Source: Gammaproteobacteria bacterium MedPE
Lineage (GTDB): Bacteria > Pseudomonadota > Gammaproteobacteria > Enterobacterales > Psychrobiaceae
Direction: 5' to 3'
Assembly: GCA_001874365.1 (NCBI GenBank)
Contig: MPDF01000011.1
Coordinates: 1-48,795, forward strand
DNA length: 48,795 nt
The position numbers and the translations under genes were made by a program. Below the pieces are notes generated by a model. The model had not been told where the DNA came from. It searched no databases and saw only the letters and a program-made list of their open reading frames with translations. Shown here one piece after another: positions 11,111-42,504 of this stretch; the first letter of the stretch is position 1; each line of letters opens with the position of its first letter.

Positions 11111-12523
11111 ATGACAAACACTTCTCAACCAACTATTTTGTGGCACGATTATGAAACCTGGGGTGCTGATACGAGACGCGATCGCCCTGCTCAATTTGCG
11201 GCTATTCGCACCGATCTTGATCTTAATATCATCGGCGAGCCCATCGAGCTTTATTGTGAATTAGCAAATGACTATTTACCCGCGCCACAAGCTTGTTTTG
11301 TGACAGGACTCACGCCTCAAAAAGTCAATCGTCTCGGCATGCCTGAAACGCAATTTATAGAGAAGATTAATGAAATTTTTAGCCAACCCAATACGACAGT
11401 AGCTGGATATAATAATATTCGTTTTGATGATGAGATTACGCGGCAAACGCTGTATCGAAATTTTCAAGATCCTTACGCACGAGAGTGGCAAAACGGATGT
11501 TCACGTTGGGATATTATAGACCTAGTTAGAACCTGCTATGCGCTGCGCCCCGAAGGTATTGAATGGCCTACTAATGACGATGGCATCGTCAGTTTTCGTT
11601 TAGAGCTACTGACCGCTGCTAACAATATCGCTCACGAAGGTGCGCATGATGCGATTAGCGACGTTATTGCGACGATAGAGATGGCGAAACTCATCAAAAC
11701 AAAGCAACCGAAACTTTTTGATTATGTATTTAACCTTCGTCGTAAGGCACAAGTGAGTAAACTGTTCGACTTGGTGAATTTCACGCCATTAGTTCATATT
11801 AGTTCAAAAATTCCTGCGGCTTCTGGCTGTTCAACCTACATTGCGCCAGTTGCTTATCACCCCACTAATAAAAATGCGATGATCTGTCTAAATCTCAATA
11901 TGGATTTAACGCCACTGTTGGAATTAACGCCACATGACATTGTTGAACGCATGTATACAAAACGAAGTGAACTAGGCGATCTTCTGCCAATTGCGCTAAA
12001 ACTCATTCACGTCAATAAGTGCCCCGTTATCGCACCAGCGAAAACACTGACTAAGGAAGCTGCCGATCAACATGGCATTGACCGCGTATTATGCCGTAAA
12101 AACCTCGATTTATTACTCGCCAATCCACAACTTCGAGAAACGGTTACCCAAGTCTATCAGATTCAAAATGACCACCCTGAAGAAAAAAATCCAGATTTGA
12201 TGCTTTACAGTGGCGGGTTCTTTTCTCATCATGATAAAAATGCGATGGAAAGACTGCTGCAAACGCCGCCAGAACAATTGCCTGCCGTCGCATTCAATTT
12301 TGAAGATAAACGTCTTGACGAAATGCTCTTTCGCTATCGCGCTCGGAATTACCCATTAACGCTATCGGCCTCAGAACAACAACGATGGAATGATTACCGC
12401 ATGAATACAATGGATGGACAAGGTTATGCATATCAATTAGAAACGCTGGCGTTAGAGCATGGCTCCGATGAGCGAAAGATGGCTATTTTAAAGGCCCTGT
12501 TCGAATACGCCAACAGCCTGTAG
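11111..12523 (+). CDS. sbcB: Exodeoxyribonuclease I
   Basis: 470 residues, compared with about 475 in E. coli. The DEDDh exonuclease motifs are visible: D13 and E15 (WHDYETWG), the central NNIRFDDE segment, and the EGAHDAISDV segment with the catalytic His/Asp. The SH3-like and C-terminal helical regions of ExoI follow (YSGGFF and FRYRARNYP). The enzyme digests single-stranded DNA 3' to 5' and works in recombination and mismatch repair. It is monocistronic and divergent from the thioredoxin-like gene; the 271-base spacer contains a small AGCAAT/ATTGCT hairpin and no gene. Confidence 0.95.
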   Translation: MTNTSQPTILWHDYETWGADTRRDRPAQFAAIRTDLDLNIIGEPIELYCELANDYLPAPQACFVTGLTPQKVNRLGMPETQFIEKINEIFSQPNTTVAGYNNIRFDDEITRQTLYRNFQDPYAREWQNGCSRWDIIDLVRTCYALRPEGIEWPTNDDGIVSFRLELLTAANNIAHEGAHDAISDVIATIEMAKLIKTKQPKLFDYVFNLRRKAQVSKLFDLVNFTPLVHISSKIPAASGCSTYIAPVAYHPTNKNAMICLNLNMDLTPLLELTPHDIVERMYTKRSELGDLLPIALKLIHVNKCPVIAPAKTLTKEAADQHGIDRVLCRKNLDLLLANPQLRETVTQVYQIQNDHPEEKNPDLMLYSGGFFSHHDKNAMERLLQTPPEQLPAVAFNFEDKRLDEMLFRYRARNYPLTLSASEQQRWNDYRMNTMDGQGYAYQLETLALEHGSDERKMAILKALFEYANSL

Positions 12524-36171: not shown

Positions 36172-38910
36172 TTACTGGGTTCTAAATTGACGAAAACCAA
36201 TGATACAAATCCCCAAAAATACTAAGCTCACTGCGCCGCCTGACGAGTTGCTCTCTGATATGGCCAACGTATTCGTCGCTTGAGAGACCGTTATTTGTTT
36301 GGTTACCTGACCAACGACGCCGACATTATCAGAGATGGTTAAAGTAACATTGTAAGTACCACTGTTACTGTATACGTGATTCGGCAGTTGACTCGACGCG
36401 GAGCGACCATCACCAAAATTCCATTGAAACACGGCGTGATCCGCAGGAAACTTGATGTCAGGCGTAAATGCTACAGTTAGGTTATTGGCACTGAACGAAA
36501 AATCACTTCGTTGCACATTAATCAGTTGCTCTGTTTGGTACGTCGCTCCAGAGGAATCTTCAACTGATAGTACGATGCGATATTGGCCACCACTCTCATA
36601 GCGATGACTCGGGTTTTCTTGGTCTGAGAAGTTGTCATCCCCGAAATCCCAGTGTGTTTTCACGATTGGATAACTCGATTGAACGTTCTGATTAAAACTT
36701 ACATCCAGCGCGTCGCGACTAACCCCTATCTCAGTCGACAAAACGATTGCGTTTCTGCTCAATAAAATTGAGGCATTTCGGCTTTGAGTGTCCTGCTCTT
36801 CAATAGTGAACTTAATACCCCACAATGGCAGTTTAGTACCACTTTGTGGTTGTGCCGGCGCACTGTAGTCGTTTTCATCACTAAATTGACTATTGGCCGT
36901 CAAGTGGGTGTCGCCCGACAGCGGTGTTTGTGGATACAAACTAAATGCCGCGTCACGGATCTGTCGCTCCGTATTTCCAAAACTTAGGCGATTTTGGTCT
37001 GCATCAATCACAGAGATGAATCCTTGACCCGGATGCTCACTAGAATTGTTGTTCGTATATGCGTCATTGCGATACCACAGTAATACCCCTGGATCATAAC
37101 GTTCACCAACTAATCCTACATCTAACTTTTCATTCGAACGAACTTGAATGTAATAATACTCGGGGGCTGCGTCTTTGTATTCAGAAATCCGTTCAAACGA
37201 TGTAAAGCCTTCAATAGATGTTTGCGTGAAAGCTGTTTCAAAATCATCAATTAATCGGTTGCCGTTATCACTCAATATTTTAATGTCATCGATAGCAATG
37301 CCAAAACCGCCAACGGCAGGGTCGGTCACATACTCTATGGATAACGTAACGCGTTGTCCTTGCCACGCACTAAGACCAAATACGAGGTTAGTCCAGGGTG
37401 AACCCGTTAATTGGCCAGTAAGCAAATTAGTAACATTTGGAATATTAGAAGATGATCCAATTGTAAAGTCGTTACGCAATGGATTACCGTTAATTAAAAA
37501 CCGCGCATAGTCGTAACCTTGTTCGATCTCCCACCGCGCCCAAAGTGACAATTGTACATTTGAATCATTTGGCACGTTGATCGAAAAATCTTGACGAAAG
37601 TGGACTTGATCTTGATGGTCAGCCAGCAGTTGATATTCACCTTGCTGTGCTTTACCAAAGCGCTCTTTATGAGGAGGTAACGTAATTTTCGCTTGATTAA
37701 TCTTCGTGTTGTGGTCGCTAGCTTGAGTGAGTGCTACCTTGAAATCAGCAGAAGTAAGTGTCGCCGCATCAATCTCTTGCTGATTAATCCAACTCCCGCC
37801 AAATTTCTGTTGCAATAGATCACGTGCCAACGGACTAAATGACGTTGGTTGTGTACCGCGGCGCTCGCCAAGCCAACTGCCACCAGACATAATCGACCAA
37901 TAGCCAACTGGTGAACCAACTAACGTTGAGTTCAAGTCATATTCATCATTGAGCCCAAGATCATGGCCAAACTCATGGGCTATCACACCAGAGCCTGAAT
38001 CAATCGGTACTATAGTGTAATTTCGTACTTTAACAGCACTCCCAGTAATCGCTGACTCTTTCTCACTCACTGAAAATCGATGAGACCATATTGCATTGCT
38101 TCCTAATACACCGCCGCCGGCTTCTTCACCAACACTAGAATGCACGATGAGTACATGATCGATATAGCCATCAGGTTCATCAATGACATTGTCTTTATCT
38201 AAATCTTGGGGATCTTTTTTGTCGTAATCGTTGAGATTGACACTGCCATTAGCTACTGCGGCCTCAATAGCTTCAACCACTAACGCTTCGACATTACTAT
38301 CTGAGCCCCCTTCTCCATTCCCACCGTAGAAAGCAGCTGGTTGTGTTGAGCGATACCAGCCATAAGCTTGTCCGTTAAAGTGAAAGGTACTACCTGATTC
38401 TAAATCATAATACTGATTGACTGACATTAAGTTTTCACCGCTAGGGCCATCAAAGCCGTCGGCAGAAAAAAGTAAATCACGGTAATGAGCCAAGGAATAA
38501 TCATTGTAAAATAAGTCGGTATCATTACTCGACAATCCATTGCTTGAATACGTAAGGTTAGGAAAGTCGATTAGTACAGCTAACACGTTAACATCGGTCG
38601 ATTGATTGGTATTAGTGATAGCGTATTGCCGTCCAAACTTGTTTGATTTGTCTTGGATTCGATAGTTTTGTGGCAATCGAATATTGCGCTTATCAAGTGA
38701 ACGGTAACGCTTAATATAGGCGGCAACCTTAACTTTAATCTCAGCGTCGCTATCAGCAGACGTTATTTCTCCCCGCTTTTCAAGCCAGTACGCAATTTTA
38801 GATTCATTAACTAATGCATCATCGATAACGCTATGCTGAAGTTTTGCTGCTAAGGCGACCGATGAAAAGCTCATCAGTCCAAATACGACTAAACTGGCTA
38901 TTTTTTGCAT
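36172..38910 (-). CDS. Secreted M6 (immune inhibitor A-like) metalloprotease with PKD domains and GlyGly-CTERM
   Basis: 912 residues. A signal peptide (1-22) is followed by a pro-region (35-75) and an M6 catalytic domain with the Asp-rich calcium-type motif (DLDKDNVIDEPDGYIDHVLI, about 237-255) and zinc site HEFGHDLGLNDEYD (312-325). A MAM/lectin-like beta domain spans about 430-560. Two PKD domains (WDFGDDNFSDQENPSHRY and WNFGDGRSASSQLPNHVY, about 735-875) precede a tail with SSGGAV, a hydrophobic helix and a basic end. That tail is a GlyGly-CTERM signal for rhombosortase processing in type II-secreting bacteria. GAGAGG precedes the ATG. The first 13 bases overlap the upstream lipoprotein gene. 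Confidence 0.92.
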   Translation of the reverse strand: MQKIASLVVFGLMSFSSVALAAKLQHSVIDDALVNESKIAYWLEKRGEITSADSDAEIKVKVAAYIKRYRSLDKRNIRLPQNYRIQDKSNKFGRQYAITNTNQSTDVNVLAVLIDFPNLTYSSNGLSSNDTDLFYNDYSLAHYRDLLFSADGFDGPSGENLMSVNQYYDLESGSTFHFNGQAYGWYRSTQPAAFYGGNGEGGSDSNVEALVVEAIEAAVANGSVNLNDYDKKDPQDLDKDNVIDEPDGYIDHVLIVHSSVGEEAGGGVLGSNAIWSHRFSVSEKESAITGSAVKVRNYTIVPIDSGSGVIAHEFGHDLGLNDEYDLNSTLVGSPVGYWSIMSGGSWLGERRGTQPTSFSPLARDLLQQKFGGSWINQQEIDAATLTSADFKVALTQASDHNTKINQAKITLPPHKERFGKAQQGEYQLLADHQDQVHFRQDFSINVPNDSNVQLSLWARWEIEQGYDYARFLINGNPLRNDFTIGSSSNIPNVTNLLTGQLTGSPWTNLVFGLSAWQGQRVTLSIEYVTDPAVGGFGIAIDDIKILSDNGNRLIDDFETAFTQTSIEGFTSFERISEYKDAAPEYYYIQVRSNEKLDVGLVGERYDPGVLLWYRNDAYTNNNSSEHPGQGFISVIDADQNRLSFGNTERQIRDAAFSLYPQTPLSGDTHLTANSQFSDENDYSAPAQPQSGTKLPLWGIKFTIEEQDTQSRNASILLSRNAIVLSTEIGVSRDALDVSFNQNVQSSYPIVKTHWDFGDDNFSDQENPSHRYESGGQYRIVLSVEDSSGATYQTEQLINVQRSDFSFSANNLTVAFTPDIKFPADHAVFQWNFGDGRSASSQLPNHVYSNSGTYNVTLTISDNVGVVGQVTKQITVSQATNTLAISESNSSGGAVSLVFLGICIIGFRQFRTQ

Positions 38911-39176
38911 ATCGAACCTCTCGAGTTCTTTGTCTGAATATACGCATCTAACTTTCTATACTGCACTTCTTTTGAGTCAGTTTCCTTGATATCCCCTGAC
39001 TTTATTAACATCGTTATTAGTTTTTCATGGTGAATAATCGGGGGAGACATTTGGCAAGGTTTAGTGTTAACTGGCGAATTTTTTACGGAAGCATCCTCTG
39101 ATGACATTGAACTATCGACACTTTCACATCCCAATATCAACAGTAAAGGAAGAAATACAACACAACACTTTTTCAT
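38898..39176 (-). CDS. Small lipoprotein resembling the pro-region of the adjacent M6 protease
   Basis: 92 residues from the ATG at 39176, chosen because AAGG lies 6 bases upstream; an in-frame ATG lies 15 bases earlier. The lipobox is LLILGC (C17). A Ser-rich spacer follows, then residues 51-87 align without gaps with residues 34-70 of the protease: 12 of 37 identical, including KL...L.K.G.I, DS, and K..AYI. Two cysteines (C41 and C90) could form a disulfide. It overlaps the protease start by 13 bases, so the two are translationally coupled. I infer an inhibitor or folding partner of the protease; this is not established. Confidence 0.8.
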   Translation of the reverse strand: MKKCCVVFLPLLLILGCESVDSSMSSEDASVKNSPVNTKPCQMSPPIIHHEKLITMLIKSGDIKETDSKEVQYRKLDAYIQTKNSRGSICKK

Positions 39177-39316
39177 TAGTACCTTATTCATCTTGCATTT
39201 ATGCGTTTACTATAACGTAATGACGTAGAAAATATTCATGAATTTAATGATTTATTTGGCCTCGCACTTTGTATACAATATAAATTAATGACTAATTGAA
39301 ATAATTAAGGTATCTC

Positions 39317-40540
39317 ATGAATAATGGTATCGGCGGCTCAACGACGCAAGAAGCCCTATCAAGACTTTCAACGATGACAGCGGGTTTTAATGCCCCGTCT
39401 CCTCAAGAATATGCTCAACGGATAAAACGCGCAATCGAACTCATGAAAGAGCATAATATTGATGCCATCTACTTAAATGCTGGCACGAATATGACGTATT
39501 TTACCGGTACTCCTTGGTATGCGTCAGAACGACTGGTTGGCGCGTTATTAACTAACAACGGAGAACTAACTTATATCGCGCCGTGGTTTGAAGAAAGTAC
39601 CTTAACTGAATTTATGACCATTAAGGCACCAGTCGCGACATGGCATGAACATGAGTCACCATATAATGTGGTTGTAGAGCTGGCGAAGAATAATGATATT
39701 GAACAACTCGCCATCGATGAATCAACCGCATTTTTCATTGTCGATGGAATTAAACAAGCCGCGCACAATCATGACTACTCACTCACGTTTGTTAATAGTA
39801 AGGCAGTTACTGCTGGATGTCGCATGCAAAAATCAGACGCTGAGCTTCGATTGATGCAACGAGCCAAAGACATGACAATGGAAGTCCATAAAGCGGCTGC
39901 AAGCATTCTAACACCTGGCATCACAACGACGCAGGTTAGCGAGTTTATCAACCTCGCACATCAAGCTGTTGGCGCAAAAGGATCTTCCTTTTGTATTGTA
40001 CTCTTTGGCGAAGCAACGGCTTACCCGCATGGTGTCAAAGAACCTCAGACATTAAAATCGGGCGATATGGTATTGATTGATACAGGGTGCCAACTTCACG
40101 GTTATAATTCAGATATCACTCGAAGCTATGTATTCGGTGAAGCAACTGAGAAACAGAGAATGACTTGGCAGCATGAAAAAGACGCGCAACTTGCAGGCTT
40201 TAACGCTGCGAAGATTGGCGTAGCCTGTGAGGAAGTTGACATTGCGGCCCGCAATTACCTTACTCAGCAAGGGTATGGCCCGGATTACAACGTGCCTGGC
40301 CTGCCCCACAGAACGGGTCATGGATGTGGGCTTGATATCCACGAATGGCCTTACCTCGTGCGAGGTGATAAGACGCTTTTGGCCCCCGGCATGTGTTTTT
40401 CAAACGAGCCGATGATTTGTATTTATGGAGAATTTGGCGTTAGGCTAGAAGATCACTTTTACATGACAACCTCAGGGCCCAAATGGTTTACTGAGCCAGC
40501 GTTTGCCATTGATGATCCTTTCGGATCCGCAAAGACATAA
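39317..40540 (+). CDS. M24-family metallopeptidase (Xaa-Pro aminopeptidase/dipeptidase-like)
   Basis: 407 residues. An N-terminal creatinase-like domain (about 30-165) precedes a pita-bread domain with the five metal ligands D255 (LIDTGCQ), D266 (NSDITRS), H335 (TGHGCGLDIHE), E364 (FSNEPM) and E378 (VRLEDHF). Members cleave Xaa-Pro dipeptides or N-terminal Xaa-Pro bonds, and some cleave other C-N bonds. There is no signal peptide, so it is cytosolic. It stands alone between the lipoprotein gene (divergent) and the SDR gene. Confidence 0.92.
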   Translation: MNNGIGGSTTQEALSRLSTMTAGFNAPSPQEYAQRIKRAIELMKEHNIDAIYLNAGTNMTYFTGTPWYASERLVGALLTNNGELTYIAPWFEESTLTEFMTIKAPVATWHEHESPYNVVVELAKNNDIEQLAIDESTAFFIVDGIKQAAHNHDYSLTFVNSKAVTAGCRMQKSDAELRLMQRAKDMTMEVHKAAASILTPGITTTQVSEFINLAHQAVGAKGSSFCIVLFGEATAYPHGVKEPQTLKSGDMVLIDTGCQLHGYNSDITRSYVFGEATEKQRMTWQHEKDAQLAGFNAAKIGVACEEVDIAARNYLTQQGYGPDYNVPGLPHRTGHGCGLDIHEWPYLVRGDKTLLAPGMCFSNEPMICIYGEFGVRLEDHFYMTTSGPKWFTEPAFAIDDPFGSAKT

Positions 40541-42428: not shown

Positions 42429-42504
42429 GCGCGATTAGCTCAGTTGGTAGAGCGCTAGCTCGACATGCTAGATGTCACAAGTTCAAGTCTTGTATCGCGC
42501 ACCA
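42429..42504 (+). tRNA. tRNA-Val(GAC)
   Basis: 76 bases with the 3' CCA encoded. The acceptor stem is GCGCGAT/ATCGCGC, D stem GCTC/GAGC, anticodon stem CTAGC/GCTAG and T stem ACAAG/CTTGT, all fully paired. The T loop TTCAAGT is normal. The anticodon loop is TCGACAT, giving anticodon GAC (valine). Position 33 is C where U is nearly universal. Confidence 0.93.

What the first reader, a model, noticed from the sequence alone, without database searches (positions are those of the whole stretch)
38898..39176. A stand-alone prodomain-like lipoprotein overlaps the M6 protease gene
Seen: the small lipoprotein's C-terminal 37 residues align without gaps with residues 34-70 of the protease just after its signal peptide (12 identities, with KL/KI...L.K.G.I, DS and K..AYI), and the genes overlap by 13 bases. 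Known: propeptides of secreted metalloproteases keep them inactive, and free propeptide-like inhibitors exist for other protease families. Inference: the lipoprotein is a cis-encoded immunity protein or folding chaperone that holds the protease inactive in the periplasm before type II secretion. I know of no described case for M6 proteases.
Basis: partly seen in the sequence, partly recalled or inferred. Interest (0 to 1): 0.72.

Follow-up and report, generated by a model that had tools for sequence, protein, structure and literature searches.

The report
Stand-alone pro-domain beside its protease
A tiny membrane-anchored protein encoded directly in front of a secreted protease is a detached relative of that protease's own built-in safety domain, and the same gene pair recurs in other bacteria, including Shewanella, Vibrio and some Bacillus relatives, so it is probably an antidote that protects the producing cell.

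Summary
The 92-residue lipoprotein (39176-38898, minus) overlaps the M6 protease gene (38910-36172) by 13 bases. Its C-terminal half is homologous to the protease's own pro-region. The pairwise match is modest (BLAST E 0.007), but profiles settle it: a model built only from the genus's lipoproteins hits 51 of 81 M6 ORFs of named loci at E<=0.001, against none in shuffled or reversed controls at E<=0.01.

The free domain recurs: beside M6 in 24 of 80 named M6 loci, and all 51 free copies found in 394 genomes of the order lie upstream of an M6 gene on the same strand. It has three forms: cysteine-paired lipoprotein (this one), Sec-exported (Vibrio, Photobacterium), Bacilli lipoprotein. AlphaFold gives the same helix-loop-helix pattern in both proteins.

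Best explanation: a free, lipid-anchored pro-domain that holds the neighbouring M6 protease inactive inside the envelope, working like AprI or SUB1-ProM. Homology and linkage are shown; inhibition is inferred (0.6). My literature searches found no such pair described for M6. The partner is optional: 56 of 80 named M6 loci lack it.

The parts
38898..39176 (-). Free pro-domain lipoprotein gene (92 aa; signal peptide residues 1-16, lipid-attachment Cys17, linker 18-40, hairpin domain 41-92)
   Evidence: orthologues in 7 of 9 genus genomes, own included
39126..39128 (-). Codon of the lipidation cysteine (C17) after the lipobox LILG
   Evidence: Sequence; C17 invariant in the 7-row genus alignment
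38904..39026 (-). Two-helix hairpin of the free pro-domain (helix 51-60, loop, helix 69-91)
   Evidence: AlphaFold2 model, pLDDT block means 94-97 over residues 51-80, 79 over 81-90; profile match to M6 pro-regions
38907..39056 (-). Span between the two conserved mature cysteines C41 and C90, which bracket the hairpin (probable disulfide staple)
   Evidence: 18 of 18 type A proteins have a Cys before the hairpin and another 47-51 residues later (counted from the positions printed); the disulfide itself is inferred
39182..39185 (-). AAGG ribosome-binding motif of the lipoprotein gene
   Evidence: sequence
38898..38910 (-). 13-base overlap of the two reading frames
   Evidence: the same 13-base overlap in two sister genomes (L009, L010)
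38917..38922 (-). GAGAGG ribosome-binding motif of the M6 gene, inside the 3' end of the lipoprotein gene
   Evidence: sequence
36172..38910 (-). M6 (immune inhibitor A-type) metalloprotease, 912 aa: signal peptide, pro-region, catalytic domain, MAM and VEG domains, PKD domains, GlyGly-CTERM-like tail
   Evidence: Pfam PF05547 E 9.2e-91, PF20773, PF20774, PF18911; NCBIfam TIGR03296
38695..38814 (-). Cis pro-region of the protease homologous to the lipoprotein domain (residues 33-72; helices 36-45 and 55-74)
   Evidence: Profile hits at 38695-38814, E 0.03 and 38698-38817, E 4.7e-4; model, pLDDT block means 64-85 over residues 31-70
37786..38604 (-). Catalytic domain PF05547 (residues 103-375), zinc motif HEFGHDLGLND at residues 312-322
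   Evidence: sequence
36175..36246 (-). GlyGly-CTERM-like tail (SSGG, hydrophobic stretch, basic end)
   Evidence: By eye; not reported by TIGR03501

Best explanation
The small gene encodes a free-standing M6 pro-domain tethered to the cell envelope by a lipid anchor. It is made just before, and probably translationally coupled to, the M6 protease. Exported through Sec, lipidated at Cys17 and stapled by a C41-C90 disulfide, its two-helix hairpin docks in trans on the site of the catalytic domain that the protease's own pro-domain occupies. Any protease that sheds its cis pro-domain too early, or that lingers at the envelope, is thereby held inactive until it is secreted (probably by type II secretion). 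In short, it is an immunity protein for a secreted protease. Shown: the gene, overlap, lipobox, cysteine pair, homology to the pro-domain, matching predicted helices, conserved linkage to M6 across families and in a few Bacilli. Inferred: binding, inhibition, disulfide, periplasmic face, coupling.
Against: No inhibition or binding data and no complex model. The partner is optional: 56 of 80 named M6 loci lack it, and 19 genomes of the order have an M6-size pro-region hit and no free copy. Some genomes with the pair hold further M6-size hits elsewhere (G443, G458, two in G459) whose neighbours were not checked. Free and cis domains of one locus are only 12-62% identical over at most 40 columns, below 35% in 24 of 30 pairs. 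The Foldseek matches are not significant individually (E 6.4 and 9.5), and the VIA Z to 5abk is only 2.6, below an unrelated chain at 3.2. As I recall from the InhA2 structure paper (not held), latency there depends on the free N-terminus of the pro-peptide reaching the zinc. A lipidated N-terminus cannot do that, so docking of the hairpin alone might not block the active site.
Confidence: 0.6

Rival explanations
1. In-trans folding chaperone: the anchored pro-domain helps the protease catalytic domain fold in the periplasm, as the lipase foldase Lif does (recalled), and inhibition is secondary.
For: Pro-domains often act as foldases (general knowledge). In the order the free gene is upstream of M6. 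In one locus (L049) the cis pro-region looks degraded in its second helix while the free copy is intact.
Against: 22 of 24 linked proteases in the named loci have a cis pro-region hit at E<=10, and one more by eye, so a second foldase looks redundant. Bacilli copies sit 286-293 bases upstream or even downstream of M6. The domain is only about 40 residues.
Confidence: 0.15
2. Tether or releasable ligand: the lipoprotein binds the protease to hold it at the envelope or pilot it to secretion, or is itself cleaved and released by it, as Listeria Tim is by the metzincin Mtz, without a protective role.
For: Lipid anchor plus long low-confidence linker; precedent of a metzincin and lipoprotein gene pair in which the protease cleaves and releases the lipoprotein (PMC8235301, abstract and passages).
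Against: The Vibrio and Photobacterium forms have no lipobox yet the same linkage, so tethering is unlikely to be the shared function.
Confidence: 0.12
3. Activator or competitor: the free hairpin competes with the cis pro-domain for its docking site and so hastens, rather than blocks, activation.
For: It holds the hairpin but, being lipidated, cannot carry a free N-terminus to the zinc, which (recalled, paper not held) is the inhibitory contact in the InhA2 zymogen.
Against: An envelope-anchored activator of a general protease made inside the cell would be self-damaging; AprI and SUB1-ProM precedents point to inhibition.
Confidence: 0.08
4. Chance similarity or a non-functional duplicate of the pro-region.
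For: The pairwise match alone is modest (E 0.007).
Against: Profile evidence with controls, constant Cys spacing, three groups of free copies and linkage to M6 in all 51 cases found.
Confidence: 0.02

Closest known systems
Cis pro-peptide of M6 proteases (InhA2 zymogen 4yu5/4yu6; PrtV N-terminal domain 5abk)
   Same: Homologous domain with the same helix-loop-helix pattern; same partner enzyme type. The single-structure matches are weak on their own.
   Different: Here it is a separate lipoprotein with its own signal peptide, a conserved cysteine pair and no free N-terminus.
AprI/Inh periplasmic inhibitors of serralysins (M10)
   Same: Small exported protein encoded by the gene for a secreted metalloprotease and thought to protect the periplasm (PMC4070987, abstract and passages).
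   Different: No Pfam match to it here, not pro-domain derived and not a lipoprotein (as far as I know); uses its free N-terminus on the zinc (PMC4070987, passage).
Propeptide-like inhibitors: SUB1-ProM (subtilase) and the I29 family (CTLA-2, crammer, BCPI)
   Same: A free copy of a protease's propeptide that inhibits it; SUB1-ProM is also encoded beside subtilase genes (PMC6993865, abstract; I29 seen only in the search listing).
   Different: Other protease classes, from eukaryotes. Inhibition is proven there, not here.
Mtz-Tim of Listeria (metzincin plus TIMP-like lipoprotein)
   Same: Adjacent genes for a secreted metzincin and a lipoprotein proposed to act with it (PMC8235301, abstract and passages).
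   Different: Tim resembles TIMP by predicted fold, not a pro-domain; it is cleaved and released by Mtz.
PepSY domains of M4 propeptides and free PepSY proteins
   Same: A propeptide module that also occurs alone and is suspected to regulate peptidases (recalled; no paper on it was read).
   Different: No PepSY hit here; a different fold and protease family (recalled).

Membership tests
M6 pro-domain homologues (the group I file this under) | Significant profile similarity to M6 pro-regions | tested here: met
   (51 of 81 M6 ORFs at E<=0.001; shuffled and reversed controls 0 at E<=0.01)
M6 pro-domain homologues (the group I file this under) | Short helix, loop, long helix as in the protease's pro-region | tested here: met
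   (predicted models); solved-structure matches point the same way but are not significant
Free pro-domain linked to M6 | Gene adjacent to an M6 gene | tested here: met
   All 51 found in 394 genomes of the order; 24 of 80 named M6 loci have one
Propeptide-like protease inhibitor | Inhibits the cognate protease | not testable with these tools
   Needs protein; no complex prediction was possible
Propeptide-like protease inhibitor | Encoded separately from the enzyme yet homologous to its propeptide | tested here: met
Peptidase family M6 (partner protease) | PF05547 catalytic domain with HExxH zinc motif and InhA MAM/VEG domains | tested here: met
   HEFGHDLGLND
AprI/Inh (I38) inhibitor | Sequence membership of the Inh Pfam family | tested here: not met
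   P0001 has 0 Pfam families at E<=1; not among the 10 families matched by any of 24 free copies at E<=0.1
PepSY | PepSY Pfam domain | tested here: not met
   no match
T6SS immunity lipoprotein NF045617 | Score over the curated cut-off of 43 bits | tested here: not met
   15.7 bits, residues 6-72
Bacterial lipoprotein | Signal peptide ending in a lipobox with Cys | tested here: met
   LILG-C17 by inspection and invariant C17; no dedicated predictor was run

The most novel reading that the evidence does not exclude
A general, so far unnamed self-protection scheme for M6/InhA-type secreted proteases: the pro-domain was detached at least twice, perhaps three times (gammaproteobacterial cysteine-stapled lipoprotein, Vibrio-type soluble protein, Bacilli lipoprotein), and recruited as an envelope-resident antidote encoded next to the enzyme.
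Probability: 0.5. Interest if true: 0.72.

Novelty: new variant of a known kind. Interest (0 to 1): 0.62.

Why it matters
M6 proteases include PrtV and InhA, studied as virulence factors. As far as I know, how producing cells survive them while they pass through the envelope has been explained only by the cis pro-domain. A free, gene-linked pro-domain would add a second safety layer, turn an unannotated small protein family into predicted specific M6 inhibitors, and make 'why do some M6 producers need an antidote and others not' directly testable by gene removal.

Tried and rejected
Chance match: rejected.

Known family: no Pfam family at E<=1 for the lipoprotein; for the 24 free copies, ten Pfam families each matched by one member at E 0.012-0.099. 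NCBIfam: 45 families at E<=0.1, of which 25 are shown, each matched by at most 3 of 24 members; the best is LpoB-type TIGR02722 at 1e-5 in 2 members; I take these for lipobox similarity but did not inspect the alignments.

Free copies not linked to M6: searched in 22 genomes of the 24 positive loci (23 handles given, L053 not given, L049's record not held). No further small-frame hit covering the hairpin appeared. The remaining hits are M6-size frames, or cover only the signal part of the profile, except two in Bacilli (G456, 297-aa frame; G457, 467-aa frame) that run from position 1 to 77-78 and were not examined. Two of the 22 genomes (G438, G442) show only the free copy, their M6 pro-region staying under the threshold. 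In the 394-genome search one hit (G656, profile positions 1-55) was of the signal kind and was left out of the counts; only 12 candidates per genome at most were scored there, so its counts are lower bounds.

Narrow genus profile over 369 genomes of the class: only the own genome plus one weak hit (E 0.004) with stops in frame. only repeated, the family holding no other genus.

Recent duplication from each locus's own protease: not supported; free copies group with each other in three clades rather than with their neighbour. The tree rests on 40 columns; the Bacilli and Vibrio forms sit among or next to Bacilli pro-domains.

Plasmid-borne copies: none for one Vibrio form.

Fold searches: 5abk and 4yu6 appear but without significant E; VIA ranked an RNase P chain above 5abk.

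Rhombosortase: a hit at 60.7 bits is under the 84-bit cut-off, and that search rings in all 14 control genomes, so it says little. Promoter and terminator scans found no more than shuffles do.

Complex prediction was not possible with the structure tool. I considered reading one locus through the lipoprotein stop into the protease to get a fused model, and did not do it.

Literature: ten searches (one search was rejected and not counted), some of them on analogues rather than on M6, gave no description of a free M6 pro-domain in the listings. Most subscription papers are not in the library.
Full report
What is there. On the minus strand, a 92-aa ORF at 39176-38898 ends 13 bases inside the start of a 912-aa M6 metalloprotease gene (38910-36172). 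Upstream of it, 140 bases away and divergent, is an ORF at 39317-40540 that looks like an Xaa-Pro-type peptidase by eye. The small protein has a lipobox (LILG-C17). A ribosome-binding motif AAGG precedes its ATG, and GAGAGG precedes the protease ATG from inside the small gene. The protease carries the M6 catalytic domain (PF05547, E 9.2e-91), the InhA MAM and VEG domains and PKD repeats. Its last residues (SSGG, hydrophobic stretch, basic end) look like a GlyGly-CTERM tail by eye, but the curated model TIGR03501 did not report it. A type II secretin gene is present over cut-off. GlyGly-CTERM tails route a T2SS substrate to the cell surface in V. cholerae (PMC6219818, abstract and passages).

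Is the similarity real? Pairwise it is modest: BLASTP E 0.007, 31% over 39 residues (47-85 against 33-71); 24 of 20,000 shuffles of a 37-residue segment score as well against the whole protease, 12 of 20,000 against its first 110 residues. With relatives it is clear. Seven of the 9 genomes of the genus, own included, have the lipoprotein. Searching those genomes with the seven-row alignment brings up, besides the lipoproteins, M6 pro-regions in three genomes at E 0.017-0.044 and one partial match in G008 at E 0.003 that covers only profile positions 1-48. An HMM of the seven lipoprotein domains, run on 3767 ORFs of 96 loci, hits 51 of 81 M6 ORFs of the named loci at E<=0.001, 61 at E<=0.01 and 73 at E<=10; ORFs of 200 aa or more that are not M6 give none up to E 1. 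Shuffled and reversed ORFs give none at E<=0.01 (best 0.28). An alignment of 24 free copies with no protease in it finds the window's own pro-region at E 4.7e-4 in the whole genome. Profile against profile gives 99.1%, E 1.5e-18, an optimistic figure because both sets were placed by the same HMM.

How far does it reach? Of these 80 named loci, 24 have a free copy within 300 bases of M6. By my reading of the record titles, that is 20 of 35 gammaproteobacterial loci and 4 of 45 others, all four Bacilli: Alkalihalobacillus macyae, Bacillus sp. RAR_GA_16, Pseudalkalibacillus spartinae, and Fictibacillus nanhaiensis (where it lies downstream). Not every Vibrio or Shewanella has it: L080, L087 and L088 (Vibrio) and L048, L051, L059 and L118 (Shewanella) do not. 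Two of the 24 are weak: L053 is a fragment in a MAG, and L068 scores E 0.99 with this HMM though it aligns with its Vibrio-type relatives. In 394 genomes of the window's order, 70 have a hit with the 24-row alignment at E<=0.001 (107 rows). I sorted these by frame size: 51 free copies in 51 genomes, 55 protease-size hits in 55 genomes, and one hit to the signal part that I dropped. At most 12 candidates per genome were scored, so these are lower bounds, and some of the genomes are those of named loci used in the alignment. Two free copies (G785, G524) have long frames in the table; I classed them as free copies from their loci. Of the 51, 35 lie within 2 kb upstream of a protease-size pro-region hit on the same strand, 15 more are directly upstream of an M6 ORF on inspection, and the last (G003) is upstream of an M6 start cut by the contig end. 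Nineteen genomes have a protease-size hit and no free copy. Of 15 gammaproteobacterial M6 genomes without a neighbour, 8 gave hits (10), all in frames of 759-1021 aa, so no free copy showed elsewhere at E<=0.01. In 22 positive genomes no further small-frame hit covering the hairpin appeared; two hits in longer frames (297 and 467 aa, Bacilli) were not examined.

Three forms. Type A (18 proteins; window genus, Shewanella, Colwellia, Ferrimonas, a Kangiella MAG, other MAGs and G013) is a lipoprotein with one cysteine before and one after the hairpin, 47-51 residues apart in 18 of 18, and a C-x(2-5)-P-P motif by pattern in 15 of 18. Type C (4; Bacilli) is a lipoprotein without the pair. In a 115-domain tree on 40 columns the three forms make three groups, apart from the pro-domains of their own neighbours, the Bacilli and Vibrio forms lying among or next to Bacilli pro-domains; the tree is too short for firm dating.

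How it probably works. A pro-domain freed from its enzyme, exported, fixed to the membrane, stapled, and made beside an enzyme that keeps its own pro-domain is best read as a second, trans-acting lock: an immunity protein. The position in the envelope would fit both groups: periplasm in Gram-negatives, outer face of the membrane in Bacilli. For comparison, AprI is thought to protect Pseudomonas against its alkaline protease and binds the zinc with its free N-terminus (PMC4070987, abstract and passages), and SUB1-ProM is a free propeptide that inhibits a subtilase and is encoded beside subtilase genes (PMC6993865, abstract). A lipidated N-terminus cannot make an AprI-type zinc contact, so in types A and C the block would have to come from the docked hairpin or the linker before it; the Vibrio form should have a free N-terminus and could use it. 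These steps are inference.

What speaks against it. Most of the M6 loci examined (56 of 80) do without the partner; no binding or inhibition is shown; the individual fold matches are weak; the hairpin might dock without blocking. Foldase, tether and activator roles remain open at 0.15, 0.12 and 0.08.

Verdict. The inhibitor interpretation is the most likely but untested. I found no description of a free M6 pro-domain in the listings of ten searches of the open-access library, some of them on analogues.

Noticed in passing
L023 (genome G002, C6:188001-189962): A second M6-like protease in a sister genome gave no hit to the free-domain HMM and no free copy beside it was found.
   Followed up: partly
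L049:2995-5958: The protease's own pro-region looks degraded in its second helix (no HMM hit at E<=10) while the free copy upstream is intact: a candidate for a pro-domain supplied only in trans.
   Followed up: partly
L053:131-331: Free copy in a Shewanella MAG lacks a signal peptide in its ORF; probably a fragment or assembly fault.
   Followed up: no
A4 rows of Vibrio and Photobacterium (L064-L071): A Cys-x-x-Pro-Pro-like motif sits before the hairpin in most lipoproteins, while a similar Cys-Ile-x-Pro motif is at the C-terminus in several Vibrio forms, as if the flanks had been swapped.
   Followed up: no
L100:2482-5424: In Fictibacillus nanhaiensis the free copy lies downstream of the M6 gene rather than upstream.
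   Followed up: partly
L048, L059, L118 against L013: Three Shewanella M6 genes with the same upstream gene as G013's (an ORF starting MDIFSAAVMLFLIMDPLG) lack the free copy that G013 has, which suggests gain or loss at one site.
   Followed up: partly
L135, L136 (G433:C1:9024-9143 and 12209-12328): Two protease-size pro-region hits about 3 kb apart in the Vibrio penaeicida genome: perhaps a tandem pair of M6-like genes.
   Followed up: no
window 42429-42504: tRNA-Val (gac) on the plus strand, the only tRNA in the window; the ORF at 42472 overlaps it and is unlikely to be a gene.
   Followed up: no
L103: Record titled Chryseobacterium carries an M6 gene whose pro-domain groups with Bacilli; perhaps a mislabelled or contaminated assembly.
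   Followed up: no
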